This document shows, piece by piece, positions 4,558 through 24,135 of a stretch of 26,649 nucleotides of DNA; position 1 is the stretch's first letter, and every line of letters starts with the position of its first letter. The translations under genes and the position numbers were made by a program. Origin of the DNA: an uncultured Eubacteriales bacterium (GTDB lineage: Bacteria; Bacillota; Clostridia; Christensenellales; QALW01); the NCBI GenBank assembly GCA_900552055.1, contig URYI01000013.1:1-26649 (forward strand). The letters are read 5' to 3'. The notes under the pieces are model-generated. The model was not told the origin of the DNA, did no database searches, and saw nothing but the letters and a program-made list of their open reading frames with translations.

Positions 4558-5493
4558 CTATAGTGCTGGTGCCGATAAGTAATTGGAAAATAATTCGTTT
4601 AAGATATCATATTCGCATTTTAAAATATATTTAAGCTCATCTATGCTTGATTGAGAATTTTCAAGCATGGAATTTATATATGTATCTATATCTTTCATTG
4701 CCGTTTTATACTTATTTATTAATTGGTTGTTTTCATCGAGCAAATATATTAAACATTGATACAGGATTTTCTTTTGCAGCTTTATCACATTTAAAGAACG
4801 CTCTATTAAGTCATTGTCCTGTACATAGCCTTCTTTTATATACTGTATAAATTTAATAATGGCCTCAATACCCGTATATTTGGTGTAATCATTCTTTACC
4901 GAATGAATATATTCGTATAATTGACCGGCAAATTTACTGTAATTAAATCCCATAACCTTTTCGGTTTTTTTGAGATAGTATATATTTATATGATTATTTT
5001 CTAATATTAAACTGTCTGTAAATTCCTTTTGACCGATATCTATTATCTGATAGTAGCCATTTATATATAAAACAGCTCGGAAAGATTTTCCTTTATCAGC
5101 GCCGATGAGCAAATAATCATTTTGGTTATGGAATTCCATATATCTTTCGCTATTGCTAATATAATATTCATCAAAAGACCCGTAAACATAATACTGATGC
5201 AAGATACAAGCTTCCGCTATCTCTGCTGTAATAGGTTTGTTTTTAACAATAAACGCAGGAAGGGAGGCTACGGCATTGGTTAATAATCCATCGGCTGTAA
5301 ACATAAAATTATTTGAATAAAAATTAAGCCATATAGCCGGACGGTAATCATATAATGCTAGCTGTATTAAATTGGAATGAATATAATTTTGAAAGTCAGC
5401 ATTATTGCTCGTTAATATCCCCGTGCTAAAAATCTCAAGGTTATAATATCCTAAGACTTTTTCCAATGAAAAAGGCAAAAGTACCTTATCCAT
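4558..5493 (-). CDS. Cargo protein of unknown function, BtrH-like motif (paralogue 2)
   Basis: A 311-residue soluble-looking protein and the last gene of the cargo operon. Its first ~180 residues are homologous to the protein encoded upstream at 5521-6501. Both have an F/WMFTxDGL block (here residues 63-70) and a G-x-F/Y-DEYYI block followed by FH, then DYLLIGAD (here 105-133). The pattern 'D.YY(I)...Y..FH...DY...GAD' faintly resembles the butirosin BtrH N-terminal family, which moves acyl groups from a carrier protein. However, the usual early catalytic Cys is not visible and the second His of the motif is Asn here (FHNQND). The C-terminal ~120 residues are helical and charged. A role in acyl or peptide handling is plausible given the ACP in the operon, but unproven. 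GGAGG ribosome site before the ATG at 5493; 27-nt gap from its paralogue. Confidence 0.7.
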   Translation of the reverse strand: MDKVLLPFSLEKVLGYYNLEIFSTGILTSNNADFQNYIHSNLIQLALYDYRPAIWLNFYSNNFMFTADGLLTNAVASLPAFIVKNKPITAEIAEACILHQYYVYGSFDEYYISNSERYMEFHNQNDYLLIGADKGKSFRAVLYINGYYQIIDIGQKEFTDSLILENNHINIYYLKKTEKVMGFNYSKFAGQLYEYIHSVKNDYTKYTGIEAIIKFIQYIKEGYVQDNDLIERSLNVIKLQKKILYQCLIYLLDENNQLINKYKTAMKDIDTYINSMLENSQSSIDELKYILKCEYDILNELFSNYLSAPAL

Positions 5494-5520
5494 TTAAATA
5501 CCTCCTCAAGCATATGATGT

Positions 5521-6501
5521 TTAAAAGCAAGTAAGCAAATCAGGAAGAATTTTTTCTTCCATACTAATACTATCTTGTATATAATTTATGATTCTTTCTC
5601 CAATAGTAGCATCAAAAACAAGGTTAAATCTCATAGATAGTTTTAATACTATTTGACTATTTTCATAAATATATTCCAAAAACGCCAAAATATTATCATT
5701 AATTGATATATGTATATTTTCTTTAAGATATTTAAATCTAGCCAGCATAAATTTTTTATGCTCTGCAAAAGCATAGATTGACCTTATGTCTAAATTCAGC
5801 TTATGATTAATAGTGTCTATACAATGATTTAGGAGAGCATGACAAGCACAAATGCCAAAAAAATCCGATTCCATCCTGCTATTGGGTTGAGAAAAAATAT
5901 ATTTATATAAACTTTCCTTGATTAGCGCCAGATTAATATCTAAATCTATACTGTTATTAAATTTTATAGGCCACATGTGTATTCGGCCATCTGATACTAT
6001 AATAGATTTTATAAAGTGATTAAAATTAATTTTATACGGCTGATAAAAGCCATTTTTTAGGTATCCCGCAGATAGAAACTGCTTATTTTCAGTATCTGCG
6101 CCGTATATAATGTAATCATGGTCAAAATGAAACTTATTATATGAGCTTTTATCCGGAATATAATATTCATCATAGAGTCCCATCATATAATAACCTGCCT
6201 TTAATGACGAAATTACAATATCACAAATATCAAAAGATTTAGATGTAAACATAAAACCAGGCAATTCCAACATATTTAATGTTATCAAGCCATCTTTGGT
6301 AAACATCCAATTTTCATAACGATTATTATAATTAAGTCTGGTTCCCGATTCTTCCCAGTTAGCATAATATATTAACTGAATATAATGAGACAATAAATAA
6401 GGATAATATTTTAAATCTTTAGAAAAAATTATCCCTGATAAATAGGCCTCCGGATGATAAGCTTTAATTATTGGATTTAGATTAAATGGCAAAGAAATCA
6501 T
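5521..6501 (-). CDS. Cargo protein of unknown function, BtrH-like motif (paralogue 1)
   Basis: A 326-residue protein, paralogue of the next gene downstream. The shared blocks are WMFTKDGLITLNMLELPGF (residues 65-83) and GLYDEYYIPD with FHFDHDYIIYGAD (108-136). It has the FH..HDY..YGAD arrangement that recalls the His-containing strand of BtrH N-terminal/papain-like folds, and it retains the second His that its paralogue lacks. No signal peptide or membrane segment is seen. Several Cys occur at 220-235 (GICACHALLNHC) in the helical C-terminal part. A GGAGG ribosome site precedes the ATG at 6501. The 100-nt gap after the SdpI-like gene is the longest interior gap of the operon except that around the precursor. 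I do not recognise a defined function; acyl transfer, precursor processing or immunity are all possible. Confidence 0.7.
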   Translation of the reverse strand: MISLPFNLNPIIKAYHPEAYLSGIIFSKDLKYYPYLLSHYIQLIYYANWEESGTRLNYNNRYENWMFTKDGLITLNMLELPGFMFTSKSFDICDIVISSLKAGYYMMGLYDEYYIPDKSSYNKFHFDHDYIIYGADTENKQFLSAGYLKNGFYQPYKINFNHFIKSIIVSDGRIHMWPIKFNNSIDLDINLALIKESLYKYIFSQPNSRMESDFFGICACHALLNHCIDTINHKLNLDIRSIYAFAEHKKFMLARFKYLKENIHISINDNILAFLEYIYENSQIVLKLSMRFNLVFDATIGERIINYIQDSISMEEKILPDLLTCF

Positions 6502-6603: not shown

Positions 6604-7173
6604 TCAATCTAAGGTATAATTCTGCTTTTTGCCTTTTTTCACTACACAACTCATATAAAACAAACTCAAAAAAATTGGAACGAGCAATAGCAAGTTATTC
6701 AACAAAAAGCGCAGTCCACCTCCAATGTAAAAGGTCAACAAAAACTGGGGCATAATAAAAAACGTCGTTATGCAGGAAAACATACTGTGTACTTTATGCC
6801 ATAAAACAGGATTTTCAATAAGGACAGGCGTTCTTAAGCCAAATAACCAATTCGGTTTGGATTTGGGAGCATAGACTGCCCATCCTGTCATCACCAAAGT
6901 ATATATAGGTCCAACCACGCTATAACCATCAATAACCATCTGGTCTTGGATACCTTTTGAAAACCAGAACAGCAAAAATGCAATAAAATATACTATATAA
7001 AAAATCGTGTCCAAAATATTTCTTTTTACCAGCATAGATATCACTCCCACTGCAACAGGTATGATAATCAATAGTATCTGATATACAGAAACGGTTGACA
7101 GCCATATAAGACCAATTACGCCCAATACTAATCCACTCAGTACAAAAGAAATCTTATATTGGTTTCTCATCAT
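6604..7173 (-). CDS. SdpI-family membrane protein, candidate immunity protein
   Basis: A 189-residue integral membrane protein with about five or six hydrophobic segments (for example 10-46, 53-71, 85-102, 131-152 and 156-176). The cytoplasmic motif PNWLFGLRTP, followed by ENPVLWHKVH (residues 107-129), is the hallmark of the SdpI C-terminal region. In Bacillus subtilis, SdpI is the immunity protein against the membrane-collapsing toxin SdpC and also signals through SdpR. Family members often accompany peptide toxins. Its start codon overlaps the stop of the lipoprotein gene by one base (TAATG), so the two are translationally coupled. Within an operon making a putative channel-forming peptide, self-protection is the simplest role; this is inferred from family and context. 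Confidence 0.82.
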   Translation of the reverse strand: MMRNQYKISFVLSGLVLGVIGLIWLSTVSVYQILLIIIPVAVGVISMLVKRNILDTIFYIVYFIAFLLFWFSKGIQDQMVIDGYSVVGPIYTLVMTGWAVYAPKSKPNWLFGLRTPVLIENPVLWHKVHSMFSCITTFFIMPQFLLTFYIGGGLRFLLNNLLLLVPIFLSLFYMSCVVKKGKKQNYTLD

Positions 7174-8561
7174 TATCCTCCTATTTTACCGGCGATAATC
7201 CAGCCGTATATATCTTCCATAACCCTTGAATCAACATTTCCCGGCTTAAGCATATCCTCCGCCAGCCAACCACTGCCCGGCACAAATAAATGATTCAGTC
7301 CCGCATATTCCCGGATAACAACATTGTCCTGAACAAGCTTTTTTTCCCATAAGTCCTTTTCTGTTCTATCCACATTTTTATCATTGCCTGCAAACAGCAT
7401 CAAGCAAGGAACTTCTATATGTTCCATTTCCGTCGCAGGATCATAGTTTTTCAAATATAAATAGTAATATTTATTAAGACCCAAAAGCAATTCCGGACCC
7501 TCGTTTGAGTTTTCATTCAGATTTTTTATTCTGTCCCTTGCCGCCTTATATTCTTCCAGCATGACCTGCATGGACGGATCTGTTTCAGAGTTATGCTCTT
7601 TCATGTATAGTTTCTGCTGCTTGACCATTAAATCTTCCACAGGCGAATAGCTTGCGCCCATAAAAATCAGTCCGGACAGCGGCAAACCTTTCTCAACTGC
7701 CAGCTTATATATCCGAGGCAACAGGTAACCTGATTGGCTGTGACCAATTAAATAAATGTTGTCAAACCGATATACATCATCACCGTTAAAAAACTCAATG
7801 ATAGCCAATACGTCCGCGATTACTTCTTCATAGGGCGTTATGGTTTTAATGTCTATCGTATCCATGTAATAATAAGTGCGTTTGTAAAATCTGTATGTCG
7901 CGATTCCCTTATCATACAAAGCCTCGGCCATATCCTGATATGGCTTCAAAAGGCCTGTTGAACAGTTATAGTCCTGCGGTCCCGAACCATGTAAAAAAAT
8001 AGCGATGCTATTGGTAGGATTTTTTTCCGGAGACAGCAATATGCCGGGTAGCTTATTTTCGGTTGCTCCCAGGCTTAAAGGTGTACCTTTTTCGTTTGGA
8101 GTACAATCGATGATAGGGTAAAAATCAAATCCTACCAGTTCATGCTTCTCCGAAAAAGATATTGTGACGGTAAAGGCATCCGTCTCGGTGCTGCAGGTAT
8201 AATTGCATATAGTATACCCACCCAGCGCCTGTTCTTCTATGTCCGTAACCTGCGTAAAAGCGCCGCGCTTGCTTTCCATTTGTTCAACAAAATATTGCAG
8301 CACGGAAGGTTTTAGAAAATCTTTCAGCGTCTGGTCATAATGATATGTTTTCATCATACGATCATACGCTTTGTTCTGAAATAAATCTACAACAAAAGCT
8401 TTCCCGGCCTCTGCATCCGAAGCAAAGTTTGTCGGCGTAACGCTTAATGCGGTTGGCGTGTTGCCCAGCTTCGGCGTACTTGTCAAATTCGGGTTGCCGC
8501 TGCACCCATTCAACAAAAACAAAATCATAATAATTACGGTAATTGCTGTCGCTTTCTGCAT
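7173..8561 (-). CDS. Lipoprotein alpha/beta hydrolase with DUF3887-like domain
   Basis: A 462-residue exported lipoprotein. The signal peptide has a hydrophobic core and an LLNGC lipobox (Cys20), followed by a Ser/Thr/Pro-rich linker. Residues about 48-150 form a DUF3887-like domain (AGKAFVVDLFQNKAYDRMMK). Residues about 170-462 form an alpha/beta hydrolase: the HGSG oxyanion region near 191, nucleophile elbow GHSQSG (Ser275), likely acid Asp394 in AGNDKNVD, and His424 in GLNHLF. It would act outside the membrane on an ester, amide or acyl substrate. In this operon it could degrade or deacylate the product, or protect the membrane. Clostridial genomes carry many such hydrolases as housekeeping genes, so cargo-specific function is not certain. 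Coupled to the SdpI-like gene. Confidence 0.82.
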   Translation of the reverse strand: MQKATAITVIIMILFLLNGCSGNPNLTSTPKLGNTPTALSVTPTNFASDAEAGKAFVVDLFQNKAYDRMMKTYHYDQTLKDFLKPSVLQYFVEQMESKRGAFTQVTDIEEQALGGYTICNYTCSTETDAFTVTISFSEKHELVGFDFYPIIDCTPNEKGTPLSLGATENKLPGILLSPEKNPTNSIAIFLHGSGPQDYNCSTGLLKPYQDMAEALYDKGIATYRFYKRTYYYMDTIDIKTITPYEEVIADVLAIIEFFNGDDVYRFDNIYLIGHSQSGYLLPRIYKLAVEKGLPLSGLIFMGASYSPVEDLMVKQQKLYMKEHNSETDPSMQVMLEEYKAARDRIKNLNENSNEGPELLLGLNKYYYLYLKNYDPATEMEHIEVPCLMLFAGNDKNVDRTEKDLWEKKLVQDNVVIREYAGLNHLFVPGSGWLAEDMLKPGNVDSRVMEDIYGWIIAGKIGG

Positions 8562-8573
8562 ATTCTTACTCTC

Positions 8574-10358
8574 CTAACAATATTTTTCATACTGCATGCT
8601 ATACAGATATCGATAAATTCCGTTTTTATTTATCAACTCTTCATGGCTTCCGGTTTCTGCAATAATTCCATTATCTAATACTATAATTTTATCCATCATT
8701 TTCAGATTGCTTAATCTATGTGAAATTAACAATAAAGTGTTTTTATTCAACTTATCAAAAACACTCTGAAATATTATATGCTCTGATTCAATATCTAGTG
8801 ATGCAGATGGTTCATCCAATATATAAAATTGAGCTTTTTTATAAAAGAAGCGAGATAATGCCAATTTTTGCCATTGCCCGCCAGATAATTCTTTCCCATG
8901 CTCATCAAAACTTTTAGTTAGATAGCTATATATTCCATCCTCCCAATTTTTTACAAATGAATATGAATCGCTTTGAACACAAGCTTTTATAATATCCTCG
9001 TCTTTATGTTCCGCTCTATTAATATCTGCTAGAATTACATTATCTTTTAAGCTAAATGAATAATTTATATAATCTTGTAACATAGTAGAGAAAATATTAT
9101 AATAATCTTGAAAATCAAATTCAGTTATATTAATTCCATTTAACAATATTTCACCTTCTTTTACATCATATAATCTTAGTAATAGTTTTACAATAGTACT
9201 TTTCCCACAACCATTTTTACCAACAATGCCAATCTTGTCACCCTTATTAATAGTAAAAGAAATCCCTTTAAGAACGTATTCTTCAGTATTTGGATATTTA
9301 AATGAAACATTTTTAAATTGTAAGCTTTTAAATTCTTTAATATTAATGGGGACTGGATTTTCATATACAAGTGGTTTCCAATCCATAAACTTATAATAGT
9401 ATTCTACCTTTATACGTTGCTGGATTAGTTCTGAAATAGCTGCAATAATGCCAAAAGTAGTGGTAGTTATTTGTCCCATAATTCCAAGATAATAAGTGAA
9501 ATCTCCTACCGTATTATCACCTTTTGAAATATTATATATTACATAGCCAGCAAAAAATATAGTAATAATATTAGGCAAAAACATAGTTAAAAAAGAAGCT
9601 GTAAACTGTTTAGATAATATTTTTCTTTTACTTGTAAACCAGTTCAACCATTGCATTTTATATCGCGCATGTAAATTATCTTTTACTCTATTAATTCTTA
9701 TATCCTTGCTGAAATATTTGGATATCAATGTGTCATAAGTATAATTCATTTTTCTCACTTCATTGATTGTTCCTCTATTCCAGTTATACAACTTAAGCGC
9801 ATAGTTCCTATCAAATATAAAATTAGGTAAACACGAGAGTACAATGATGAATGGAGCCCACCATATATAATTAAAAAATATAACAAAAGCAGTAAAAAAC
9901 TGAATTGTAATCTGTATAACACTGAGTAGATTCCATACTAGCTGAGAAATAGAATTAACATCCCTCGTCACATTAATAGTTTCATTATATAGTTTAGGAT
10001 CATCAAAATATGAAATATCCAACTTGTTGATTTTATTAATAATATCATTAGAAATAATGAAAGATATCTGCTCTGAATGTATGATAGTAAAATAATTTAT
10101 AATTTTTGATATTACTGCGTTAAAAATCTGTACTATGCCTAACAAAAAAAACCAATATAGGCATCTATTTGTATCAGTGACTATTAATGCATCAGTAATC
10201 TTTCTAATTGTTAAAAGATTAATTGCGGGTATAAAGGCACTTATTGCCATAAAGAGAATACGAATAATGGTTATAGCAACAGAAGCCTTAAGAGAAGTTT
10301 TAAGACTAGTAACTAGAGTAATACAATATATTTTTACCGATTTAAAAAAAACGCTCAT
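8574..10358 (-). CDS. ABC exporter, fused membrane and ATPase domains
   Basis: A 594-residue half-transporter. Membrane domain, residues about 25-325, with six hydrophobic segments; ATPase domain about 345-594. The ATPase has Walker A GKNGCGKST (380-388), signature LSGGQWQKLALSR (491-503), Walker B FYILDEPSASLD (511-522) and switch His547. It would work as a homodimer to export the mature peptide. There is no N-terminal C39 peptidase domain, so it cannot remove a leader itself. It begins two bases after the stop of the PaaK-like gene. Members of this subgroup are common in lanthipeptide, cyclic-peptide and other RiPP operons. High confidence for exporter; substrate inferred from context. Confidence 0.9.
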   Translation of the reverse strand: MSVFFKSVKIYCITLVTSLKTSLKASVAITIIRILFMAISAFIPAINLLTIRKITDALIVTDTNRCLYWFFLLGIVQIFNAVISKIINYFTIIHSEQISFIISNDIINKINKLDISYFDDPKLYNETINVTRDVNSISQLVWNLLSVIQITIQFFTAFVIFFNYIWWAPFIIVLSCLPNFIFDRNYALKLYNWNRGTINEVRKMNYTYDTLISKYFSKDIRINRVKDNLHARYKMQWLNWFTSKRKILSKQFTASFLTMFLPNIITIFFAGYVIYNISKGDNTVGDFTYYLGIMGQITTTTFGIIAAISELIQQRIKVEYYYKFMDWKPLVYENPVPINIKEFKSLQFKNVSFKYPNTEEYVLKGISFTINKGDKIGIVGKNGCGKSTIVKLLLRLYDVKEGEILLNGINITEFDFQDYYNIFSTMLQDYINYSFSLKDNVILADINRAEHKDEDIIKACVQSDSYSFVKNWEDGIYSYLTKSFDEHGKELSGGQWQKLALSRFFYKKAQFYILDEPSASLDIESEHIIFQSVFDKLNKNTLLLISHRLSNLKMMDKIIVLDNGIIAETGSHEELINKNGIYRYLYSMQYEKYC

Positions 10359-10360
10359 TT

Positions 10361-11560
10361 TTACCCCATAAATCGTATATACGAAAATTTTCGATTACTA
10401 TCCATAAAATCTTTTTCCTGGGTAGTAATTTCAATATCAAAGTTATAATCTGGTATGCCTAGTTGAAAAAATTTATTCTTAAAGTAATTTTTTCGCATTT
10501 CTAAATAATTCACATAATTGCCACAAGTTAGTATCACCATTCTAATTGATTTCCCATTAACCTCAACATAAAATTGCATAATATAATGTTCACTTATGTT
10601 AATCTCGTCAATAATATTAAGAAAAAAAGCAGGATCTAACTTGAGAGTATCATTAATAGTAATAACCTCGCTCTCTCTACCTCTTTGTAATTTTAATATG
10701 CCGCCATTACAACCACATTTGCATTTTGTTTTTCGATCAATGTGTCCTATATCGCCAATAGCATAACGTAAAAGAGACATAGCCTTATTTACTAATCCAG
10801 TAACAATTAGTTGGCCAGAGTATAATTCATCTTCTACATAAACATTATTTTCCAATATGTGCATATTACCATATGGACAAGTTAAAGCAATTCCATTAAA
10901 TTCAACACTTCCATAAAGATTGGCTATTGGAATGTTAAAAATACCCTTAAGCTCTTGATATACTCTATTTTCTACGAATTCACCATTTAGCTCAATATAT
11001 CTAAGGCTATCCATAACAACCTTTTTTTTCTTTATATGTCTCGCTAATATCAGAATAATTGATGGTTGACCTAAAATCCACTTGGGTTGAAATTCCAAAA
11101 TCAAACTTATGTACCTATCTAGAATCGCTTCATCATATTTGTATCTCCCCAGAGATAATGTCCTTTCATTATTATACAAAATAACATCTAATAAAACGCA
11201 TTGTTCTCCTGTGGAAGCACTAGAATGAAAAGTTATAAATTTATCATTAGGCGAAATATCATACCATTTTTTACGAAGAAGCCACGTATAAAAATTTGAC
11301 TGAGTGAAATCGCTTTTTGTCCATTTAACTTTAAGCGGTAGACCAGTTGTACCCGAAGTCGATACTATGATCATATTATTTTTTTGCTCATGACTAATGA
11401 TAGTATCATAGTTATTTATTACAGCATCTTTTTTAATTATAGGTAAAATAGCTATATCTGTACTTTCAATATATTCTTTATGAATATATTGATTATAAAG
11501 TGTATTATAAAAATTAACATTCTTATATGCATAGTTGAGAATGTTTATTAGATTATTCAT
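10361..11560 (-). CDS. PaaK/CapK-like adenylate-forming enzyme
   Basis: A 399-residue ANL-superfamily protein of the phenylacetate-CoA ligase/CapK branch. The phosphate-binding loop is STSGTTGLPLK (residues 67-77). Further on, LYGSVEFNGIALTCPYGNMH matches the branch's YG.tE motif and the 'C..G.lHi' strand. CKCGCNGGILKLQRGRESEV carries the Cys cluster and the GR hinge to the small C-terminal domain. Such enzymes activate a carboxylate as an acyl-adenylate; some load CoA or a carrier protein, others modify polysaccharide or peptide. Here it may activate an acyl group, or the peptide's own carboxylate, for a later step. Its ATG overlaps the radical SAM stop by one base (TAATG), tying it to the maturation genes. 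Substrate unknown. Confidence 0.82.
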   Translation of the reverse strand: MNNLINILNYAYKNVNFYNTLYNQYIHKEYIESTDIAILPIIKKDAVINNYDTIISHEQKNNMIIVSTSGTTGLPLKVKWTKSDFTQSNFYTWLLRKKWYDISPNDKFITFHSSASTGEQCVLLDVILYNNERTLSLGRYKYDEAILDRYISLILEFQPKWILGQPSIILILARHIKKKKVVMDSLRYIELNGEFVENRVYQELKGIFNIPIANLYGSVEFNGIALTCPYGNMHILENNVYVEDELYSGQLIVTGLVNKAMSLLRYAIGDIGHIDRKTKCKCGCNGGILKLQRGRESEVITINDTLKLDPAFFLNIIDEINISEHYIMQFYVEVNGKSIRMVILTCGNYVNYLEMRKNYFKNKFFQLGIPDYNFDIEITTQEKDFMDSNRKFSYIRFMG

Positions 11561-12546
11561 TATATCATCTCAATTCTAATACTATCTTGTTCAAAAGCAC
11601 TTAAGTCGTATATACTTTTTACTTTCCTAATAGTAGTTAACACATCTTTATTCCCCCATATCCTGTTGTATCCCAATTTCCAATAATCTATCAACCGCAT
11701 ATTATCTATATTGCCAACAACAATGGGTATATATGGAGTTATAGTTAAATCACCTATTGATGAAATATTCATTACTATAGGATATTTACGTTTACTTAAA
11801 AGCACAATAAACAAATGCTCTAAAGGATCTCCCCACTCAAAATTTACCATTGGATACTCTTCTTTAAGGGCCGATAGACGATACACGAAATCAAAAGTTT
11901 CCATATTACTTAACAGTAAATCATTACAGAACTGATTACCTCTCCCCATAGGGATAAGAGGCATCATTCTTATAGTGCTACATCCAAGACTTGTTATATA
12001 TTTAACATAGTTTTCAAAAGTTTTATAATTTAATTTATTCGGGCAACACGATACCATAGTTCCTATATCTTCTTCCATTAAACACATTAAAGCATTAATA
12101 GCTTTCTTAAATGAACCTTGCATATTTCGAAATATATCGTGTTGATAGCCTAACCCATCAACACTTATTTGTACTTTAAATACCCCAGAATCTTTTAAAC
12201 GTTTAGCAACATTTTTATTTAAAAGCAACCCATTAGATACAATGTTTACAGCTACATTACTATTTGATATTATTTTAATAATATCATATATATTTTCATT
12301 TAATAATGTTTCACCACCACAAAGACAGCACTGAGTAGGATGCATATCAGCAATTTGATGTGCTATATCAAGGACTTTTTCTCTACTTAATTCGTTACTA
12401 AAATTATGTTTTGAAGTATCTCCACTACTATTATAGCAATGGCGACAACGCATATTACATTTGTTAGTAATATCCCATGAAACCATATGTGGTCTTTGCA
12501 TACTATTATTGTATTTTACTTTATTATAGTTTTTCATCAAATCCAT
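11560..12546 (-). CDS. Radical SAM peptide-modifying enzyme, SPASM cysteines lost (epimerase candidate)
   Basis: A 328-residue radical SAM protein. The 4Fe-4S motif CNMRCRHC places cysteines at 30, 34 and 37, followed by the SAM-binding GGE (77-79) and the ISVDG strand (127-131). The architecture continues into a SPASM-like segment at 265-289: GDLTITPY...VVGNI...LIDYW, matching the usual 'G.v.pC....GNi.e..l..iW'. The auxiliary-cluster cysteines there are replaced and the last Cys in the protein is Cys207. It should therefore bind only the SAM cluster, unlike sactisynthases. Position right after the precursor gene argues for direct action on it. Radical SAM epimerisation (PoyD-type L-to-D conversion) fits the alternating core; Cys167/168 (VSCCPN), 189 or 207 could donate the hydrogen atom. 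The specific chemistry is inferred. AGGAG site precedes the ATG. Confidence 0.88.
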   Translation of the reverse strand: MDLMKNYNKVKYNNSMQRPHMVSWDITNKCNMRCRHCYNSSGDTSKHNFSNELSREKVLDIAHQIADMHPTQCCLCGGETLLNENIYDIIKIISNSNVAVNIVSNGLLLNKNVAKRLKDSGVFKVQISVDGLGYQHDIFRNMQGSFKKAINALMCLMEEDIGTMVSCCPNKLNYKTFENYVKYITSLGCSTIRMMPLIPMGRGNQFCNDLLLSNMETFDFVYRLSALKEEYPMVNFEWGDPLEHLFIVLLSKRKYPIVMNISSIGDLTITPYIPIVVGNIDNMRLIDYWKLGYNRIWGNKDVLTTIRKVKSIYDLSAFEQDSIRIEMI

Positions 12547-12605: not shown

Positions 12606-12779
12606 TTATTTACTTATAATATTAACATTTAAACTTACATTTGCATTAGCACTTACATTTAGATTAACCTGCGCAATTGCATTTGCTAAATACAAAACAT
12701 TTACTGCTACTCCGGGAGTGCCCATTGCTGCAACATCATTTTCGTTGTTATCAACCAGAATAGGCTTATCATATGCCAT
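12606..12779 (-). CDS. RiPP precursor peptide with NX5N asparagine ladder (polytheonamide-like core)
   Basis: A 57-residue peptide behind an excellent ribosome site (GAAAGGAGGTG, 7 nt before the ATG at 12779). It is located between the methyltransferase and radical SAM genes, the usual place for a precursor. Residues 1-20 form an acidic leader-like part (MAYDKPILVDNNENDVAAMG); residues 21-57 form the likely core. Asn occurs at 27, 33, 39, 45, 51 and at 41, 47, 53, every six residues and always at odd positions. Even positions 24-54 are all Val, Leu, Ala, Ile or Tyr. The C-terminal string VNLNVSANANVSLNVN resembles the end of the polytheonamide core as I recall it. In that family, Asn side-chain N-methylation every six residues makes a hydrogen-bond ladder along a D/L beta-helix. 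No Cys is present, so no lanthionine or sactionine. Lys57 is the only core lysine. The leader is far shorter than the proteusin nitrile-hydratase-like leader. Confidence 0.85.
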   Translation of the reverse strand: MAYDKPILVDNNENDVAAMGTPGVAVNVLYLANAIAQVNLNVSANANVSLNVNIISK

Positions 12780-12808
12780 TATTGCACCTCCTTTCCAATG
12801 ATAATTAA

Positions 12809-12819: not shown

Positions 12820-14205
12820 CTATTTAAAGTTGGCTTTCTTAATCATGCCCTGGCGCTCTAATGACGAACAAATTGACAGATACTTTAATAGTAAAGTTAA
12901 TTCCCCTTCTTTTCCATACTTAATTTTGAATTTGAAAGGCATGTGAGCAATTATTTCCTGTACGCTAGTAACCCCATCCATTCTACGAATAAATTCGGTT
13001 AATTCATCATCAGCAGCTAGACTGTTATTATTTGAAATTTTAATAGTGTAAGTTTCTGAAAGCTTTGTAACGCTTGAAATATCAATATTTGGAATATCCG
13101 TCTTATTCCATCGGTCATTTAAATACATTTTTCTATTTGGCCTTTTATTATTAGTCACTATTATAGTAAAATTATAAAAGTAATCGGCCCCTATATTATT
13201 GTAGATATCCATCCATTGATTAGCATGGATACTATTATTACCATTTATTTTACGTGCTAATTCGGCAAATCCATTTGCCTGCTGGTTAATAATTGTTTTA
13301 TCACTATATATAACTACATAGCTCATATCAGGCAACATTGAATCCAAAGTATCATCTAAAAAAACTTTGGATTCATTACCAATGGCTTGTCCTATCATTA
13401 AGGCACGACCATTAGGTTTTAAATATAGTGTATAACCGTTAAGTATGTTTTTAATAATATCTTTTCCGTCTTCGCCACCATTTCCTGCGATAGGAAAATC
13501 TATATCTTTGGGAATGGGTATAAATGGCGGATTGGAGAGAATAAAATCAAATCTCTCCTCTTTGTCTATAACATTATATAAATCGCCACAGCGTACATCC
13601 ACTTTATTTTCTACATTATTAATATAAGTATTAAAAATTGCTACATCTTTTGATTTTGTATCAATATCTACAGCTATTACTCTATCAGCAGTTTTTGCTG
13701 AAATAATAGCTTGTATACCACTACCGGTGCATAAATCCAATACATCGCCGTGAACCATATTAATAATAGCTCTAGTCAGCCAATAAGTATCTACGCCTAT
13801 ATATGGCTTTTGATCATTATTTTGACATGTAGGATAATAATAAACATTTGAAACCAAAAAATAGCAATTACTATATGAAGTCAATAAATAGTTATTCAAC
13901 CAATAATGGTTATCATCAAAATTTAGCACCTCAAGATCATATAAATGATTAATAACATCTTGTGATATAAATTTTTCAACTATCTCGCGCTTAACTGGAT
14001 CACCTAATAAAAGGAAAGCCAATATTCCTTGCATGTCAGTGTCAATCTTTTTAAGTTCCTTCTTGACCATAAAATAATCCGGTACAGGATTAGTAAAATA
14101 ATTCGATTCTCCCAGCAATATTGTTAACATTAAATGATAATTAATTTCATCAAGACATTCTTTAAATTTATGTAATAAAATTTTATTAGCTTTTTCTATC
14201 TTCAT
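12820..14205 (-). CDS. SAM-dependent methyltransferase with NPPF motif (Asn N-methyltransferase candidate)
   Basis: A 461-residue protein. Residues 1-110 are an unassigned helical region. The class I methyltransferase core (about 135-350) has motif I VLDLCTGSG (155-163), the acidic AVDID at 178-182, and motif IV FILSNPPFIPIP (221-232). NPP(F/Y) is the signature of enzymes that methylate planar amide or ring nitrogens (PrmC/HemK on Gln, DNA adenine methylases, RsmC/RlmG types). It fits methylation of Asn side-chain amides in the precursor. The C-terminal ~65 residues (DDELTEFIRRMDGVTSVQEI... LKYLSICSSLERQGMIK) look like a small winged helix similar to PqqD-type recognition domains, perhaps for leader binding. 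It ends 40 nt before the precursor gene. Fold certain; peptide Asn as substrate is inference. Confidence 0.82.
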   Translation of the reverse strand: MKIEKANKILLHKFKECLDEINYHLMLTILLGESNYFTNPVPDYFMVKKELKKIDTDMQGILAFLLLGDPVKREIVEKFISQDVINHLYDLEVLNFDDNHYWLNNYLLTSYSNCYFLVSNVYYYPTCQNNDQKPYIGVDTYWLTRAIINMVHGDVLDLCTGSGIQAIISAKTADRVIAVDIDTKSKDVAIFNTYINNVENKVDVRCGDLYNVIDKEERFDFILSNPPFIPIPKDIDFPIAGNGGEDGKDIIKNILNGYTLYLKPNGRALMIGQAIGNESKVFLDDTLDSMLPDMSYVVIYSDKTIINQQANGFAELARKINGNNSIHANQWMDIYNNIGADYFYNFTIIVTNNKRPNRKMYLNDRWNKTDIPNIDISSVTKLSETYTIKISNNNSLAADDELTEFIRRMDGVTSVQEIIAHMPFKFKIKYGKEGELTLLLKYLSICSSLERQGMIKKANFK

Positions 14206-14216
14206 TATCTTAACTC

Positions 14217-14465
14217 CTATTTATTGGTTATTTTTGCACTAATATAATTCTCTAGGTCTTTAAGCGTCGCAATATCTTCATACTTAAGATTATCATCAAA
14301 CTGTATATCAAATTCGGATTCAATTTCTAAAATTAATTGTATTATGCTGATAGAATCAAACCCTAAATCGTTAATTATATCCGTATCATTTTTAATAGGA
14401 ACATTTTCATATAATATAGAAACTGAATCCTGAATAATTTTCATTAGCTTTTCATGAACACACAT
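14217..14465 (-). CDS. Acyl carrier protein
   Basis: An 82-residue acidic four-helix carrier protein. The phosphopantetheine site is DLGFDSISIIQLILEIE, with Ser38. The downstream helix III reads YEDIATLKDLENYI, as in fatty-acid and stand-alone biosynthetic ACPs. It would hold an acyl group as a thioester, loaded by the acyl-AMP ligase encoded just upstream and offered to the GNAT domain. Its start overlaps the end of the GNAT gene by 14 nt, with GGAGG before the ATG, so the two proteins are made together. No phosphopantetheinyl transferase is visible in the window; a host enzyme would be needed. Confidence 0.93.
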   Translation of the reverse strand: MCVHEKLMKIIQDSVSILYENVPIKNDTDIINDLGFDSISIIQLILEIESEFDIQFDDNLKYEDIATLKDLENYISAKITNK

Positions 14466-15246
14466 AATTTTGATCCTCCATTAATTTATAATAAGAAATA
14501 TAATTGTAAAGATTATCTTCTTTTAATAATCTAGCTTCAAACAAATACCCATTTTTTTCAATAAACTCCATAAGCCTTGTGTCTAGGGTTTCTTCCTGAA
14601 TAACTATTTTAATTTTATTTTGATTAAGTTGACAAAGCTTTTTTTCCACATTATGATATAATGTACTTAATCTATCAATGTTTCCGTCTGCATCTTGCAA
14701 TAAACAAATTTTAAGTGGTTGGCTGTGGTTATGAAGGTTTTGAATTCCTATAATACAATCAACGGCATCTCCAGATTTTGTAAAAAAATAATTTTCTTGA
14801 TTATGAAATCCTCTCATACGTAATGAATATTCATTAAAATATACAGTTTTAGGTGATATAGTATAAATAGTTTTATCTTTATTTCCTAATTTTTTAGTTA
14901 TCTCATTAGCAATAATGGTGTAAGTCCTTTCACCTGCAACATCAAATTCATTTTGCTCAACAAAGCTGTCAAAAAACTTTTCATTAAAATCAATTATATC
15001 TAAAAATTTAAGTTCAGATAAAAAGTCATAAATATAAGACATACTTTTTTCTTTGGTTAAATTATACTTAACCGAAAATTTATCAGCTAACCTATCAATG
15101 TTATTATCACGTTTTATTTGTTCAATTATAAAAATGCCTTGATCATTAACAAACTGTTCGCCGTATTTTGATTGAATTAGATAAAAACCATTTTGTTCAT
15201 CCTGATAAATTATATTTTGCAAAATTCGTATACAATCAATATTCAT
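14452..15246 (-). CDS. RRE (PqqD-like)-GNAT acyltransferase fusion
   Basis: A 264-residue protein with two parts. Residues about 15-88 read like a PqqD-type RiPP recognition element: strands GFYLIQSKYGEQFVNDQGIF, then a helix-turn-helix (IIEQIKRDN... DRLADKFSVKYNLTKE) ending FLSELKFLDII. Residues about 105-256 look like a GNAT acyltransferase: YFFTKSGDAVDCIIGIQNLH, ICLLQDADG, the helix DRLSTLYHNVEKKLCQL, then KIVIQEE and LMEFIEKNGYLFEARLLKED. GNAT enzymes paired with an ACP acylate peptide N-termini (goadvionin) or Lys/Orn side chains (selidamides). An RRE on the enzyme points to the precursor peptide as acceptor. It overlaps the acyl-AMP ligase by 4 nt (ATGA) and the ACP by 14 nt. The family assignment is by eye and the GNAT part is divergent. 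Confidence 0.7.
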   Translation of the reverse strand: MNIDCIRILQNIIYQDEQNGFYLIQSKYGEQFVNDQGIFIIEQIKRDNNIDRLADKFSVKYNLTKEKSMSYIYDFLSELKFLDIIDFNEKFFDSFVEQNEFDVAGERTYTIIANEITKKLGNKDKTIYTISPKTVYFNEYSLRMRGFHNQENYFFTKSGDAVDCIIGIQNLHNHSQPLKICLLQDADGNIDRLSTLYHNVEKKLCQLNQNKIKIVIQEETLDTRLMEFIEKNGYLFEARLLKEDNLYNYISYYKLMEDQNYVCS

Positions 15247-16325
15247 AATATACCTCCATAATTTCTTATTAATTTCCCAGAATACGTTTTTTCCAAATTC
15301 TTTTTTAATATAAATTTTTTAGGAATTTCGTACGGAGCTAAAACCATATTACAGACGCATTTAATATCTAATAATGACGAATCATCTAGTTCTCGTTCAT
15401 TGTCTGTTGTGTAATAGCAAATAAGAGATTCTTCATCATCGGCTTTGCATATTAAACATTCTTGCACTCTACCACATGACATTATAACTTCCTCAATAGT
15501 TTCCGGGTACACATTATGTGAGTTTATATTTATCATATTGTCTGCTCTGCCCAAAATAAACAGTTCATTTTCTGTAGTTAAATATCCAATATCCTTAGTA
15601 TCTATCCACACGTCTTGCGTATTGTATGAAATACCTTCATTAACGACGTAACCAGAATATTTTGTTTTTGTTTTTACTATAATAATTCCAGGCTCATTAG
15701 CAGCTACATTTTGTCCATTCCGATTAATTATTTTAACCTCTACTCCGTCAATAGGTTTACCAACTGAACCAGCTATATTATTTGACACCTTTGTTTGCGC
15801 GGTAACACGTGGTCCAGCTTCTGTTAATCCATATACATTAAGAATATACTTATCGGGATACCGCTGTTTTATGTTCATATGTAACTCTTGACTTAATATT
15901 GCTCCACTTGTATAAATAGTTTTTAAAGAAAGTAAATCTTCTTTCTGTACATTATACTTATACAAAAACCACATCAGAGTTGGATTAATACATATAGTGT
16001 TTATCTGAAATTTTTGAATATTACTAATTATTTCACGAAACATCATTTGAGAAGAAAATAATATAAAATTTATATGATATTTTAAACAAACTAAAAGTTC
16101 CCCCACCAAGGTTGAAACATGACATAACGATTTTATAATGGCAAACGATTCAGGGTAAGAAATATCCATATATTTATAGATAGCATCCGCATTAGTATTA
16201 ATGGCGTAGTGAGATAAAATAACGCCTTTTGAATTACCCGTTGTTCCAGAACTGTATAAAACTACTGCTTCTTCATTACTATATTTATTATGGAACTTAT
16301 CATAAAGCCATTTAGGAGCCGACAT
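15243..16325 (-). CDS. Acyl-AMP ligase, N-terminally truncated
   Basis: A 360-residue ANL-family enzyme that should activate a fatty or other carboxylic acid with ATP and load the ACP. Visible motifs: phosphate loop SSGTTGNSKG (25-34), YGLTEAGP (165-172), the DIGYLTTENELFILGR hinge (245-260), and catalytic Lys351 in KTYSGKLIRN. Full-length relatives have well over 100 residues before the phosphate loop; here only 24 remain from this ATG. In-frame upstream codons continue without a start to a TAA at 16410-16412. A separate frame begins 106 nt upstream with a good ribosome site and an ANL-like N-terminus (see 16372-16431), so a deletion plus frameshift is likely. The catalytic parts are intact, but the acyl-binding N-domain is incomplete, so activity is doubtful. 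Confidence 0.8.
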   Translation of the reverse strand: MSAPKWLYDKFHNKYSNEEAVVLYSSGTTGNSKGVILSHYAINTNADAIYKYMDISYPESFAIIKSLCHVSTLVGELLVCLKYHINFILFSSQMMFREIISNIQKFQINTICINPTLMWFLYKYNVQKEDLLSLKTIYTSGAILSQELHMNIKQRYPDKYILNVYGLTEAGPRVTAQTKVSNNIAGSVGKPIDGVEVKIINRNGQNVAANEPGIIIVKTKTKYSGYVVNEGISYNTQDVWIDTKDIGYLTTENELFILGRADNMININSHNVYPETIEEVIMSCGRVQECLICKADDEESLICYYTTDNERELDDSSLLDIKCVCNMVLAPYEIPKKFILKKNLEKTYSGKLIRNYGGIL

Positions 16326-16371
16326 TACTTTTGGTGTTTTACATAAATATTCAATAATATCAAGAGTTTTA

Positions 16372-16431
16372 TCACTCTCGTGTGGATAACCTAATTGAGT
16401 TATTTCCGATTAAACCAATTCGTTGTTTCAT
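16372..16431 (-). pseudogene. Displaced 5' fragment of the acyl-AMP ligase
   Basis: A 19-codon frame (MKQRIGLIGNNSIRLSTRE) behind GAGGT, 4-5 nt before the ATG at 16431. MKQRIGLIGNNS is just what is expected near the N-terminus of an acyl-AMP ligase ('R.gl..nnS..yi'), and it is also the first ribosome-site/ATG pair downstream of the operon promoter. The frame then stops at 16372-16374 while the ligase body continues in another frame, offset by one base. Fusing the two would still leave only about 50 residues between GNN and the SSGTTG loop, shorter than usual. Both a frameshift and a loss of roughly 50-100 codons are therefore suggested. A sequencing error could explain the shift but not the shortness. 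Confidence 0.5.
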
Positions 16432-16754: not shown

Positions 16755-16806
16755 AGCAAGCATAGGAAGTGGGTACCCACTTCCGTAATTTTGGGAAGTG
16801 TCCCAA
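16755..16806 (+). repeat. oriT-like region: 34-bp repeat copy A with 20-bp palindrome and hairpin
   Basis: Positions 16765-16784 are a perfect 20-bp palindrome (GGAAGTGGGTACCCACTTCC). Positions 16791-16806 form a TTGGGA-AGTG-TCCCAA hairpin. Together they lie 34 nt upstream of mobC, where origins of transfer of MOBP systems normally sit. The 34 bases 16755-16788 recur exactly, inverted, at 24134-24167 over the 3' end of topB; the first eleven bases here equal the last codons and stop of topB. This looks like a duplicated module. oriT function is inferred from position next to mobC/relaxase; no nick site can be assigned. Confidence 0.55.
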
Positions 16807-16839
16807 GCCCTCGAAAAAGAGAAAAGGAGCAACAAGCGC

Positions 16840-17169
16840 ATGAACGGCAGGAAACGGACGGTACAAATTAAATTCCGTGTTACAGAGGAAGAACGAGCGT
16901 TGATTGAACAGAAAATGAAGCTGATACCTACCCGGAATATGGGAGCATATCTGCGGAAAATTGCCATTGACGGATATATTATTCAGTTAGACCATACCGA
17001 CATAAAAGCTATGACCGCCGAGATACAGAAAATCGGCGTCAACGTCAATCAGATTGCGCGCCGCGTTAATGCGACGGGCAGCGTCTATGAGCAGGACATA
17101 GCAGAAATTAAGGGGGCGTTAGCGGAAATATGGCGGTTACAAAGATTAAACCTATTAAAAGCACGTTGA
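16840..17169 (+). CDS. mobC: MobC-family relaxosome accessory protein
   Basis: A 109-residue protein of the bacterial mobilisation (MobC) family. Residues 1-35 carry a ribbon-helix-helix-like start (RKRTVQIKFRVTEEERALIEQKM). They are followed by the typical RNMGAYLRKIAIDGYI, and then IGVNVNQIARRVNATGSVYEQDI near the C-terminus. MobC binds the origin of transfer and helps the relaxase open and nick DNA. I chose the ATG at 16840 over the frame's earlier ATG at 16798 because AAAAGGAG lies about 10 nt upstream of it and the earlier start would place translation across the oriT-like hairpin. The gene overlaps the relaxase start by 40 nt. Confidence 0.88.
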   Translation: MNGRKRTVQIKFRVTEEERALIEQKMKLIPTRNMGAYLRKIAIDGYIIQLDHTDIKAMTAEIQKIGVNVNQIARRVNATGSVYEQDIAEIKGALAEIWRLQRLNLLKAR

Positions 17170-18473
17170 GCAAGGCACTTGACTACATACAAAATCCAGA
17201 TAAGACAGACGAAAAAATGCTGGTGTCCTCGTTCGGTTGCTCGCCGGAAACGGCAGATATTGAGTTCGGATTTACCCTGTCGCAAGCGTTTGAAAAAGGA
17301 AACAACCTTGCACACCACTTAATCCAATCATTTGAGCCGGGCGAAGTGGATTACCAAAAGGCGCATGAAATCGGGCGGCAGCTTGCCGACGCAGTAACCA
17401 AAGGCCAACACGAATATGTTTTGACAACGCATATTGATAAGGGGCATATCCATAACCACATTATTTTTTGTGCAGTCAACTTCGTAGATCACCGCAAGTA
17501 CATTTCCAACAAACGCACCTATTACGGCATACGGAACATGAGTGATAAGCTGTGCCGGGAAAACGGCCTGTCCGTTGTTGTACCCGGCAGAGGCAGAAAA
17601 GGGAAAAGCTATGCCGAGTATCAGGCGGAGAAAACGGGTACAAGCTGGAAAGGCAAATTGAAAATCGCCATTGATACGCTTGTTCCCCAGGTATCAAGTT
17701 TTGAAGAATTGATACAGCGGTTGCAGTTTGCGGGCTATGAGATAAAGCCGGGCAAATATATCTCATGCCGTGCGCCGGAACAGGAACGGTTTACCCGATT
17801 GAAAACACTCGGCGCAGACTATACCGAAGAAGCATTAAAGGAACGGGTCAGCGGCAAGCGTACCCGCACCGCCAAAGCTCCGAAAGCAAAGCGCGGCGTC
17901 AGCCTGCTGATTGATATACAAAACAGTATCAAAGCACAGGAAAGCCGGGGCTATGCACAATGGGCGAAAATCCACAACTTGAAACAGGCTGCAAAAACGC
18001 TCAACTTCCTAACCGAAAAGAAGATTGAACAGTACGCGGATTTAATCGCCAAAATATCGGAAATTACGACGGCGAGCGAACAGGCGGCAGACGCATTAAA
18101 AGGCGTCGAAAGGAAACTTGCAGATATGGCTGTGCTGATGAAGAATGTTTCAGTCTATCAAGAAACCAAGCCTGTTTATAACGCATACCGCAAGGCAAAA
18201 AATAAAGAGCAGTACCGCACCGGGCATGAAAGCAGCTTAATACTCTATGAAGCTGCTGCCAAAGCATTAAAAGCGGCAGGGATTGAAAAGCTCCCAAGCC
18301 TTGCCGCCCTGCAAGCCGAATATGAAAAACTGCAAGAACAAAAAGAAGCTCTTTATGCTGATTACGGCAAGCTGAAAAAGCAAGTTAAGGAATACGGCGT
18401 TATCAAACAAAATATTGACAGTATTTTGCGAAAAGGGACAGAGCCGGAACAGGACAAACAAGCAGAACGTTAA
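17130..18473 (+). CDS. MOBP-type relaxase (relaxase/mobilization nuclease)
   Basis: A 447-residue relaxase that nicks one strand at oriT and carries it into the recipient through a tyrosine linkage. The likely nucleophile Tyr19 lies in ALDYIQNPDKT, a motif typical of Clostridial ICE relaxases. The metal-binding histidines are in DKGHIHNHIIF (106, 108, 110). The N-terminal ~240 residues are the nuclease domain. The remainder is highly charged and helical, with probable coiled coil (for example LAALQAEYEKLQEQKEALYA near 395-415) for relaxosome or coupling-protein contacts. It overlaps mobC, consistent with a coupled pair. The gene ends 68 nt before the antirepressor start. Confidence 0.92.
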   Translation: MAVTKIKPIKSTLSKALDYIQNPDKTDEKMLVSSFGCSPETADIEFGFTLSQAFEKGNNLAHHLIQSFEPGEVDYQKAHEIGRQLADAVTKGQHEYVLTTHIDKGHIHNHIIFCAVNFVDHRKYISNKRTYYGIRNMSDKLCRENGLSVVVPGRGRKGKSYAEYQAEKTGTSWKGKLKIAIDTLVPQVSSFEELIQRLQFAGYEIKPGKYISCRAPEQERFTRLKTLGADYTEEALKERVSGKRTRTAKAPKAKRGVSLLIDIQNSIKAQESRGYAQWAKIHNLKQAAKTLNFLTEKKIEQYADLIAKISEITTASEQAADALKGVERKLADMAVLMKNVSVYQETKPVYNAYRKAKNKEQYRTGHESSLILYEAAAKALKAAGIEKLPSLAALQAEYEKLQEQKEALYADYGKLKKQVKEYGVIKQNIDSILRKGTEPEQDKQAER

Positions 18474-23500: not shown

Positions 23501-24040
23501 GTATGCTTTGATACGTCCATTCAGATATTTTTCCATAGCTGCCTTGTCGGAAAAAACCTTTCTGTCCTGTCCGGCGATTTTCGCCTGCTCGTTTCGGTTA
23601 GGGCTGTTGGTGCGCACACTCCATGTAAGCGTCCACGAATACGGAATAGATTTCTGCATTTCTCTGTCATACCGGGTGTTTTCGTAAATGTAGTAGCTCA
23701 TCTGATAGACCCGGTTGCTGCGGATATGGCGGTCATACTCGCTTTTCTGCCATTCATTAGAGGTGTGCTGAACGGCGGGGGTTCTTGCATATTCAATCGC
23801 TTTGTCAAGCAAAAGCGTATTTCCCGCCTGTTGTTCCCATGCGGCGGCTTGCTCTTGCAGATTTTCAAAAACAGTCTGCTCGGCGGCTGCGCTTTCCTGT
23901 CGTAGCCGCAACAACTCCGCAAGCGATAAATCAACCAGCTTGGATATATCCGCTTTTTCACTTTCAAAATAAATGGTGCGCTCAATTTTCATTTTTTGAG
24001 CCGTTTCTAATCGGTCAAAATCAAAACTTGAATAGGACAA
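20570..24040 (-). CDS. ArdA-ArdC-YodL-DUF4316 antirestriction fusion protein
   Basis: A protein of about 1156 residues if it starts at TTG 24040, which has GAAAGGAG 10 nt upstream. The longer frame (ATG 24115) would begin inside the loop of the topB terminator and is unlikely. Domains, numbered from that longer frame: a DUF3849-like N-part (about 45-240); an ArdA-like region (265-460) with DPSGYWLDMP and GDEWERQFEGRGVPEEY; an ArdC-like N-domain (505-640) with FHDYSLNNTILIAMQGG; a zinc-peptidase-like HEIAH (704-708) with Glu736 in QAESVAY; a YodL domain (about 918-1018); and a DUF4316-type basic tail. ArdA mimics DNA to block type I restriction; ArdC binds DNA and protects incoming single strands. 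It likely shields the ICE on entry. Operon with TTRAP and the Cys-rich gene. Confidence 0.85.
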   Translation of the reverse strand: MSYSSFDFDRLETAQKMKIERTIYFESEKADISKLVDLSLAELLRLRQESAAAEQTVFENLQEQAAAWEQQAGNTLLLDKAIEYARTPAVQHTSNEWQKSEYDRHIRSNRVYQMSYYIYENTRYDREMQKSIPYSWTLTWSVRTNSPNRNEQAKIAGQDRKVFSDKAAMEKYLNGRIKAYDHLFTEISPKIPKEYAEYFKVNGMLMPDYTIEGEEPPQQPQAAAIPETTEQQKEREHMSEQFSILIGNRSRFAAGDPSGYWLDMPATKEQLHEAMQSVGVTADNPQDFSIRGYSDDPEKHIALPYEMVCAADVDELNFLAARIEQLDPAEIGKLNAALQQKNGFENIGQIIDFTYNVDYFVHIPDVHTPRDLGDYYLNKSGMVNMPEEWKGGIDLEAFGKHAAEQEKGAFTEYGYIVESGDEWERQFEGRGVPEEYRIMSYPQPEQTVDFDAAAPTQTAQTVEQLRPVVPIILTSENPADKIKEITARLEQGIQAVFDSDRYKEFLTAMSKFHDYSLNNTILIAMQGGNLVKGYSQWQKEFERHVKKDEKGIKIFAPAPYKVKKQVDKIDPDTKKPMLDSEGKPIKEETEITVPAFKVVAVFDISQTEGKEFPELSVKPLLADVEQYEDFFAALEKASPVPIGFEEITNGANGYFSLTDKRIAIKEGVSELQAVKTAIHEIAHAKLHDVDLNAPPEEQNRVDRRSREVQAESVAYTVCQHFGLDTSDYSFGYVAGWSSGKEMTELKASLETIQNTANELINEIEGHFTELQQQRQTEQKQETKIELPLPDPTISVKDMRDYGYAWDGMLPLRQEAAEQLYTQEDMEIYRIYEDNTEGTVTDLENLREHAEKGGLFGVEKEAWEALREYKAMQQRLQEAEPTKEALLLHGKEDTFGIYQLTRSEETRDLQFEPYDRLQAVGHTVNRENYNLIYTAPLAPDMTLDRIFETFNIDHPADFKGHSLSVSDVVVLHQNGGNTAHYVDRTGFQQVPEFLQEQQKILVPDEHMTGEAIRTPRGTFYLTDMTAEQMKAAGYGVHHTSEDGQYLIMGNGTQAFAIANEQPQRDNPLKHVEDTVEQNDNRFDGIINNTPQTPTVAELEQKAMAGEPISLLDLANAIKTEKEAQPEKKPSIRAQLKAEKEKNAAKKMEKSKNHDLEV

Positions 24041-24073
24041 TATTGTTTCGCTCCTTTCTCGGTTGTATAAGGG

Positions 24074-24090
24074 TTTGGGACTATCCCAAA
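24074..24090. repeat. TTTGGGA/TCCCAAA inverted repeat upstream of the Ard fusion
   Basis: Seven-base arms around a CTA loop. It resembles the TTGGGA/TCCCAA hairpin beside mobC (16791-16806), and it accompanies the second copy of the 20-bp palindrome in the same order when read on the minus strand. It lies 34 nt before the TTG start and upstream of its ribosome site, so it may be a regulator site for the Ard operon. Confidence 0.45.
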
Positions 24091-24095
24091 AGGAA

Positions 24096-24135
24096 AAAAT
24101 CCCTATTTTGCGCATAGCGTCAAAACAGGGATTTT
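24096..24135 (-). terminator. Rho-independent terminator of topB
   Basis: Arms 24096-24110 and 24121-24135 pair over 15 positions with a single mismatch around a 10-nt loop. On the minus strand the stem is followed by TTTTTT. It begins 21 nt past the topB stop. Its position shows that the Ard fusion gene must start below 24096 and needs its own promoter or read-through. Confidence 0.8.

What the first reader, a model, noticed from the sequence alone, without database searches (positions are those of the whole stretch)
12606..12779. Hidden 57-aa precursor with an every-sixth-residue Asn ladder, polytheonamide-like but with a minimal leader
Seen: Asn at 27/33/39/45/51 and 41/47/53; every polar core residue from 27 to 53 is at an odd position, and even positions 24-54 are only V, L, A, I or Y. 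Known: polytheonamide- and aeronamide-type RiPPs have NX5N repeats; Asn N-methylation on one face of a D/L-alternating beta-helix (about six residues per turn) stabilises a membrane channel. Those peptides use long nitrile-hydratase-like (proteusin) leaders and come mainly from Proteobacteria, Entotheonella and similar producers. Inference: this is a short-leader, Clostridial, ICE-borne counterpart, with no proteusin leader and a different enzyme set. An amyloid-like beta-strand peptide is the main alternative.
Basis: partly seen in the sequence, partly recalled or inferred. Interest (0 to 1): 0.95.

Follow-up and report, generated by a model that had tools for sequence, protein, structure and literature searches.

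The report
Asparagine-ladder pore peptide with lasso-style leader
A bacterial gene cluster on a likely mobile element encodes a 57-residue peptide with an asparagine at every sixth residue, beside a close structural relative of the enzyme that methylates asparagines in the toxin aeronamide, so it likely makes a coiled, membrane-piercing peptide by a route that uses a short lasso-type leader instead of the long leader of its known relatives.

The parts
12606..12779 (-). 57-aa precursor peptide ORF (ATG to stop)
   Evidence: no Pfam or NCBIfam family; same peptide, with four extra residues, in public protein P0001
12756..12773 (-). leader motif YDKPIL (YxxPxL, residues 3-8)
   Evidence: shared by 7 short-leader precursors beside this radical SAM family; motif recognised by lasso RREs (PMC13381572)
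12609..12713 (-). presumed core, residues 23-57; Asn ladder residues 27-53 at 12621-12701
   Evidence: core boundary is inferred
12785..12794 (-). Shine-Dalgarno AAAGGAGGTG
   Evidence: sequence
12820..14205 (-). AerE-like methyltransferase, 461 aa, Y135/D139/N225-P-P-F active site
12823..13113 (-). predicted C-terminal RRE domain of the methyltransferase (residues 365-461)
   Evidence: AF2 model; hhalign to the RRE-GNAT N-terminus 92.5% probability, E 4.9e-7
11560..12546 (-). radical SAM enzyme (CxxxCxxC plus family-specific CxCGGE); likely epimerase, untested
14452..15246 (-). 264-aa predicted RRE-GNAT fusion protein
   Evidence: C-terminal half of the model is low confidence
14217..14465 (-). 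acyl carrier protein
   Evidence: Pfam PP-binding E 2.4e-10
15243..16325 (-). AMP-forming acyl ligase lacking its N-terminal part
   Evidence: Pfam AMP-binding from profile position 162; upstream frame break
10361..11560 (-). second adenylate-forming enzyme (DVU_1553/FlxY/PaaK-like)
8574..10358 (-). ABC exporter without a peptidase-domain hit
7173..8561 (-). DUF3887 plus alpha/beta hydrolase; role unknown
6604..7173 (-). SdpI-like membrane protein, possible immunity protein
   Evidence: Pfam SdpI 23.1 bits, below its 28.2 cut-off
4558..6501 (-). two ~320-aa proteins (4558-5493 and 5521-6501); weak BtrH_N match in the latter
   Evidence: E 0.049, not significant

Best explanation
The 57-residue frame is likely the precursor of a peptide whose ladder asparagines are predicted to be N-methylated on their side chains by the adjacent AerE-like methyltransferase, after the neighbouring radical SAM enzyme would have turned alternate residues to the D form, giving a predicted six-residue-per-turn beta-helix that would insert into membranes as a pore. 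The leader motif YxxPxL is likely held by RRE domains, one fused to the methyltransferase and one to the GNAT-like protein; this would replace the long proteusin leader. The GNAT domain, with the carrier protein and adenylating enzymes, would cap the N-terminus with an acyl group. The ABC transporter would export the product and the SdpI-like protein would protect the producer. Shown by sequence or computation: ladder, shared leader motif, AerE relationship and active-site residues, RRE-like domains, co-occurrence of the genes. Inferred: every chemical step, the helix and the pore.
Against: No experiment exists. Neither PoyD nor YydG is among the 25 shown of 84 NCBIfam models that match the window's radical SAM enzyme; the shown ones are heme-pathway, GeoRSP and SkfB-type, so its chemistry is open. 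Two relatives with ladders carry an additional YydG-like radical SAM gene in or near the cluster (L081 10791-11870, E 2e-27; L088 2891-3883, E 1.4e-60, about 6 kb away; both below that model's cut-off). None was seen in the window, so epimerisation may need a second enzyme. L134 has a partial Asn hexad repeat without a methyltransferase, and a 60-aa peptide in the Collinsella region that has a methyltransferase is only 10% Asn with no lag-6 pairs. L095 has the enzymes but no ladder peptide was found. 14 further small ORFs in the ten radical SAM loci carry the leader motif by chance or otherwise (14 of 1,260). The GNAT half of the 264-aa model is low confidence (pLDDT 56.6 overall). One acyl ligase is truncated. 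The window's SdpI match is below Pfam's cut-off, and the neighbours scanned in L095 and L133 were DUF3784 and bPH_5, not SdpI. L001's ladder frame has no leader from its only standard start.
Confidence: 0.6

Rival explanations
1. The Asn are N-methylated but the peptide stays all-L (or is epimerised at few sites); the radical SAM enzyme does another reaction, and the product is not a beta-helical pore but for example a surface or signalling peptide.
For: Radical SAM enzyme without PoyD or YydG among its shown best models; the same family sits beside very different, Asn-poor hydrophobic cores in L132 and L133 and, more distantly, L136; a separate YydG-like gene near the L088 and L081 ladders.
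Against: Strict odd/even polarity and six-residue period fit a D/L beta-helix; AerE was solved with 'modified peptide substrate, AerA-DL,34' (PDB 7rc6 title), which I read as a D/L peptide; the radical SAM gene is the only one among 20 window proteins scanned; no auxiliary-cluster cysteines are conserved.
Confidence: 0.22
2. The methyltransferase modifies something else (for example a ribosomal protein or a small molecule), and the peptide is an unmodified amphipathic bacteriocin or amyloid-like beta-strand peptide.
For: Alternating polar/apolar residues fit an amphipathic beta strand; catalytic-domain Pfam hits are generic MTS/PrmA; the second-best fold match is a small-molecule methyltransferase of gentamicin biosynthesis.
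Against: Whole-length AerE fold including the N-terminal domain; predicted fused RRE domain; ladder peptides recur in 4 of 5 clusters with the full enzyme set.
Confidence: 0.1
3. The ORF is a chance or non-expressed frame.
For: No close homologue outside the same sequence.
Against: Strong Shine-Dalgarno, position between two peptide-modifying enzymes, leader motif and ladder shared with peptides in comparable places in other genomes.
Confidence: 0.03

Closest known systems
Aeronamide and polytheonamide (NX5N proteusins; AerE/PoyE pathways)
   Same: Asn every six residues in an alternating core; methyltransferase of the AerE fold with the same active-site residues; radical SAM enzyme in the cluster
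   Different: 57-aa precursor with a YxxPxL leader instead of a nitrile-hydratase-like leader; predicted RRE fused to the methyltransferase; radical SAM enzyme not evidently of the PoyD family; acyl carrier protein, ligases and RRE-GNAT in the cluster
Lasso peptides
   Same: YxxPxL leader motif; closest fold match of the RRE-GNAT N-terminus is a lasso RRE with its leader
   Different: no lasso cyclase among the window proteins scanned; radical SAM enzyme and methyltransferase instead
Epipeptides (YydF/EpeX with YydG/EpeE)
   Same: short precursor and a radical SAM enzyme; Val/Ile-rich targets (EpeE acts on Val36 and Ile44, PMC8326336)
   Different: YydG's model is not among the window enzyme's 25 shown best; candidate donor cysteines lie in CxCGGE, not at a later Cys223
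Linear polyphosphorylated peptides, LPP (PMC13381572)
   Same: Bacillota RiPP with a YxxPx leader read by an RRE
   Different: those are polyphosphorylated; the words radical SAM, GNAT, acetyltransferase, N-methyl and SdpI do not occur in that paper's main text

Membership tests
Aeronamide/polytheonamide-type proteusin | long nitrile-hydratase-like (NHLP) leader | tested here: not met
   57-aa ORF, no Pfam or NCBIfam leader family
Aeronamide/polytheonamide-type proteusin | NX5N core repeat | tested here: met
   Asn 27/33/39/45/51 and 41/47/53; NX5N named as the core motif of polytheonamides in PMC9259500 (passage)
Aeronamide/polytheonamide-type proteusin | AerE/PoyE-family Asn N-methyltransferase | tested here: met
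Aeronamide/polytheonamide-type proteusin | PoyD-family radical SAM epimerase | tested here: inconclusive
   PoyD not among the 25 shown of 84 NCBIfam models for the window enzyme; model TIGR04517 matched 0 of 4 relatives' genomes or records, but its 14 control genomes were silent too
Aeronamide/polytheonamide-type proteusin | D residues at alternate positions and N-methyl-Asn in the product | not testable with these tools
   needs mass spectrometry or NMR
AerE-type methyltransferase | N-terminal domain plus catalytic domain aligned end to end with AerE | tested here: met
AerE-type methyltransferase | equivalents of Y137, D141, N231 | tested here: met
   Y135, D139, N225 in 58 of 58
Lasso peptide | YxxPx[L/V/I/F/A] leader motif | tested here: met
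   YDKPIL, residues 3-8
Lasso peptide | asparagine-synthetase-like lasso cyclase and B2 peptidase | tested here: not met
   no such Pfam hit among 20 window proteins scanned; smaller ORFs not scanned
Sactipeptide/ranthipeptide | cysteine in the core for a thioether link | tested here: not met
   no cysteine in the peptide
Epipeptide | YydG-family radical SAM epimerase (TIGR04078) | tested here: inconclusive
   not among the 25 shown models for the window enzyme; a YydG-like second gene lies near L088 and L081, below the model's cut-off

The most novel reading that the evidence does not exclude
This is the founding window of a RiPP class that rebuilt the polytheonamide beta-helix independently of proteusins: a lasso-type YxxPxL leader is held by RRE domains fused to an Asn N-methyltransferase and to an N-acyltransferase, a new CxCGGE radical SAM epimerase with two active-site thiols makes the D/L backbone, and an acyl cap taken from a carrier protein finishes an ion channel, all spread among Clostridia on a mobile element with its own SdpI-like immunity. 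Relatives without the methyltransferase make Asn-poor versions of the same helix.
Probability: 0.42. Interest if true: 0.93.

Novelty: new variant of a known kind. Interest (0 to 1): 0.86.

Why it matters
Polytheonamide and aeronamide chemistry has been tied to long proteusin leaders and few producers. If this cluster works as proposed, the same pore architecture can be reached from a 57-residue precursor with a leader of about 20 residues, with the methyltransferase tethered to its substrate by its own RRE. That would give a small system for making N-methyl-Asn peptides, a new radical SAM family to test for epimerisation, and a simple predictor (YxxP leader plus alternating core beside a CxCGGE radical SAM enzyme) for many unnamed clusters. 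It also raises a testable question in microbial ecology: whether mobile elements of anaerobes carry gramicidin-like channel weapons.

Tried and rejected
Searching for homologues of the peptide itself found only the same sequence (P0001) and a fused variant (P0002), and no relative in viral contigs, so relatives were reached through the methyltransferase and the radical SAM enzyme. Plasmids: no near DNA match to the cluster; 12 records with a methyltransferase match, none covering 80%; 106 with a radical SAM match, of which the Collinsella record was best. Viral contigs with the methyltransferase gave four weak matches (E 2e-7 to 2e-5), with the radical SAM enzyme six, one of them strong (L126). 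Nine genome searches with the methyltransferase profile at E 1e-40 gave 2 of 391, 1 of 11, 1 of 22, 1 of 58, 1 of 22, 2 of 398, 1 of 21, 1 of 46 and 1 of 14; these overlap, and the hits are four genomes in all (G204, G313, G527, G002). In the two large ones at most 4 candidates per genome were scored (5), so they are lower bounds. L089 has a methyltransferase frame with stops, other radical SAM enzymes and no ladder. L135 gave no precursor that I could name. BLASTP between the window and L088 precursors finds nothing significant; what they share is the motif and the pattern. Fold matches of the RRE-GNAT come from a low-confidence model; families absent from that list are not excluded. Papers: PMC11285071, PMC8326336, PMC9259500, PMC10731318 and PMC12710340 were seen in passages; PMC13381572 as abstract, outline and passages; all others only in search listings. 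The AerE structure paper was not seen, only PDB titles. That AerE prefers D-Asn is recalled (the letter is missing in the review text). Literature searches for prior reports.

Full report
Observation. The minus-strand ORF at 12606-12779 encodes MAYDKPILVDNNENDVAAMGTPGVAVNVLYLANAIAQVNLNVSANANVSLNVNIISK. The statements about parity and Asn positions in the finding are right. Eleven polar residues in 24-54 fall on one parity (P 6.8e-5). With parity kept, the six Asn pairs at lag 6 still exceed shuffles (P 0.003), whereas the unbroken five-rung run alone is only marginal (P 0.055). The hexads differ at DNA level (28-72% identity), so the period is not a plain tandem repeat. A scan of 24,549 open frames in 96 sources met the ladder criterion in four distinct peptides only.

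Neighbourhood. Reading along the minus strand: a truncated acyl ligase, a 264-aa protein, an acyl carrier protein, a 461-aa methyltransferase, the peptide, a 328-aa radical SAM enzyme, a second adenylating enzyme, an ABC exporter, a hydrolase, an SdpI-like protein and two unknown proteins. Mobile-element genes flank it: serine recombinase 921-2732, MobC 16798-17169, relaxase 17130-18473, ArdA/ArdC 20570-24115, topoisomerase 24157-26271.

Relatives. Eleven distinct fetched loci carry the methyltransferase at E 1e-40 or better. Five also carry the radical SAM family and the RRE-GNAT: window, L001, L081, L088, L095. Four of these five have an Asn ladder; L095, a 15.8-kb contig, has none found. 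The six methyltransferase-only loci (L002, L003, L004, L005, L007, L089) have none in the stretches held. The ladder peptides are L088 9781-9948 (55 aa, next to the methyltransferase), L001 12516-12671 (frame with unclear start), and the central part of L081 10069-10794, whose C-terminal part is DUF5969. Lag-6 excess over parity shuffles: window 0.003, L001 0.008, L081 0.006, L088 0.10. Contig-length matching suggests that more methyltransferases lie on the same contigs as the radical SAM enzyme (15 of 68 hits compared; 14 of the 34 best).

The radical SAM enzyme. 404 homologues at E 1e-20 or better. In 55 aligned sequences (50 of the 120 listed plus five loci) the only invariant cysteines are the CxxxCxxC set and C74/C76 in CxCGGE. 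The SkfB, MoaA and PqqE alignments lack the latter pair. No C-terminal auxiliary-cluster cysteines are conserved. Known radical SAM peptide epimerases finish with a protein thiol as hydrogen donor (Cys372 in PoyD, Cys223 in EpeE; PMC8326336, passages). My inference is that C74/C76 have that role here. This is not shown, and the best NCBIfam models are of heme-pathway, GeoRSP and SkfB-like enzymes.

Substrate and enzyme co-vary. Ladder cores beside the methyltransferase hold 22-43% Asn; those of L132, L133, L134 and L136 hold 3-11%. The L081 60-aa peptide, in a region that has a methyltransferase with its own ladder precursor, holds 10%. L134 has a VNAAAV-type hexad repeat without a methyltransferase (lag-6 P 0.0003 by plain shuffle), so the six-residue period may belong to the radical SAM product in general and the methylation be an added stabiliser. 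That is the reading I favour.

Function. PMC11285071 (passages) reports that Asn N-methyl groups stabilise the polytheonamide helix and that polytheonamides are membrane-active against Gram-positive bacteria. SdpI- or DUF1648-type genes near the window, L132, L001, L081 and L088 clusters fit self-protection against a membrane-active product. In L088 the gene is about 8 kb from the peptide, so the link there is loose, and the window's match is below Pfam's cut-off.

Limits. No chemistry is shown. The window's radical SAM enzyme could do something else; two ladder loci have an additional YydG-like gene that was not seen in the window. The methyltransferase assignment is the firmest step, the acyl cap the weakest.

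Noticed in passing
window 15243-16431 (minus strand): The first acyl ligase lacks roughly its N-terminal 150 residues; a short upstream ORF starting near 16431 breaks off out of frame.
   Followed up: partly
P0002 and P0001: A public 76-aa protein fuses part of the RRE-GNAT protein to residues from about 16 to 57 of the peptide, suggesting a deletion variant or an assembly chimera; P0001 has four extra residues at the C-terminus.
   Followed up: no
L081 10069-10794 and 10791-11870: Collinsella aerofaciens record: a 241-aa protein with an Asn ladder in its middle and DUF5969 at its end, followed by a YydG-like radical SAM gene and an AerE-like methyltransferase without RRE.
   Followed up: partly
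L134 6353-6586 and L133 13260-13478: Two genomes have near-identical clusters with different cores; only one has a VNAAAV hexad repeat, as if helical turns were added or lost.
   Followed up: partly
L001 8049-9998: Radical SAM enzyme and RRE-GNAT are fused into one 649-aa ORF.
   Followed up: yes
L088 2891-3883: Gene with a full-length match to the YydG epimerase model (205 bits, below its 300 cut-off) about 6 kb from the ladder peptide.
   Followed up: partly
L126 6064-9065: A viral-contig record ends in the same radical SAM family, just downstream of a gene that looks by eye like a serine recombinase, suggesting mobile-element carriage elsewhere.
   Followed up: no
window 4558-6501: Two proteins of similar size with one non-significant BtrH_N match; BtrH-type enzymes transfer acyl groups from carrier proteins (recalled), which would fit the carrier protein here.
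   Followed up: no
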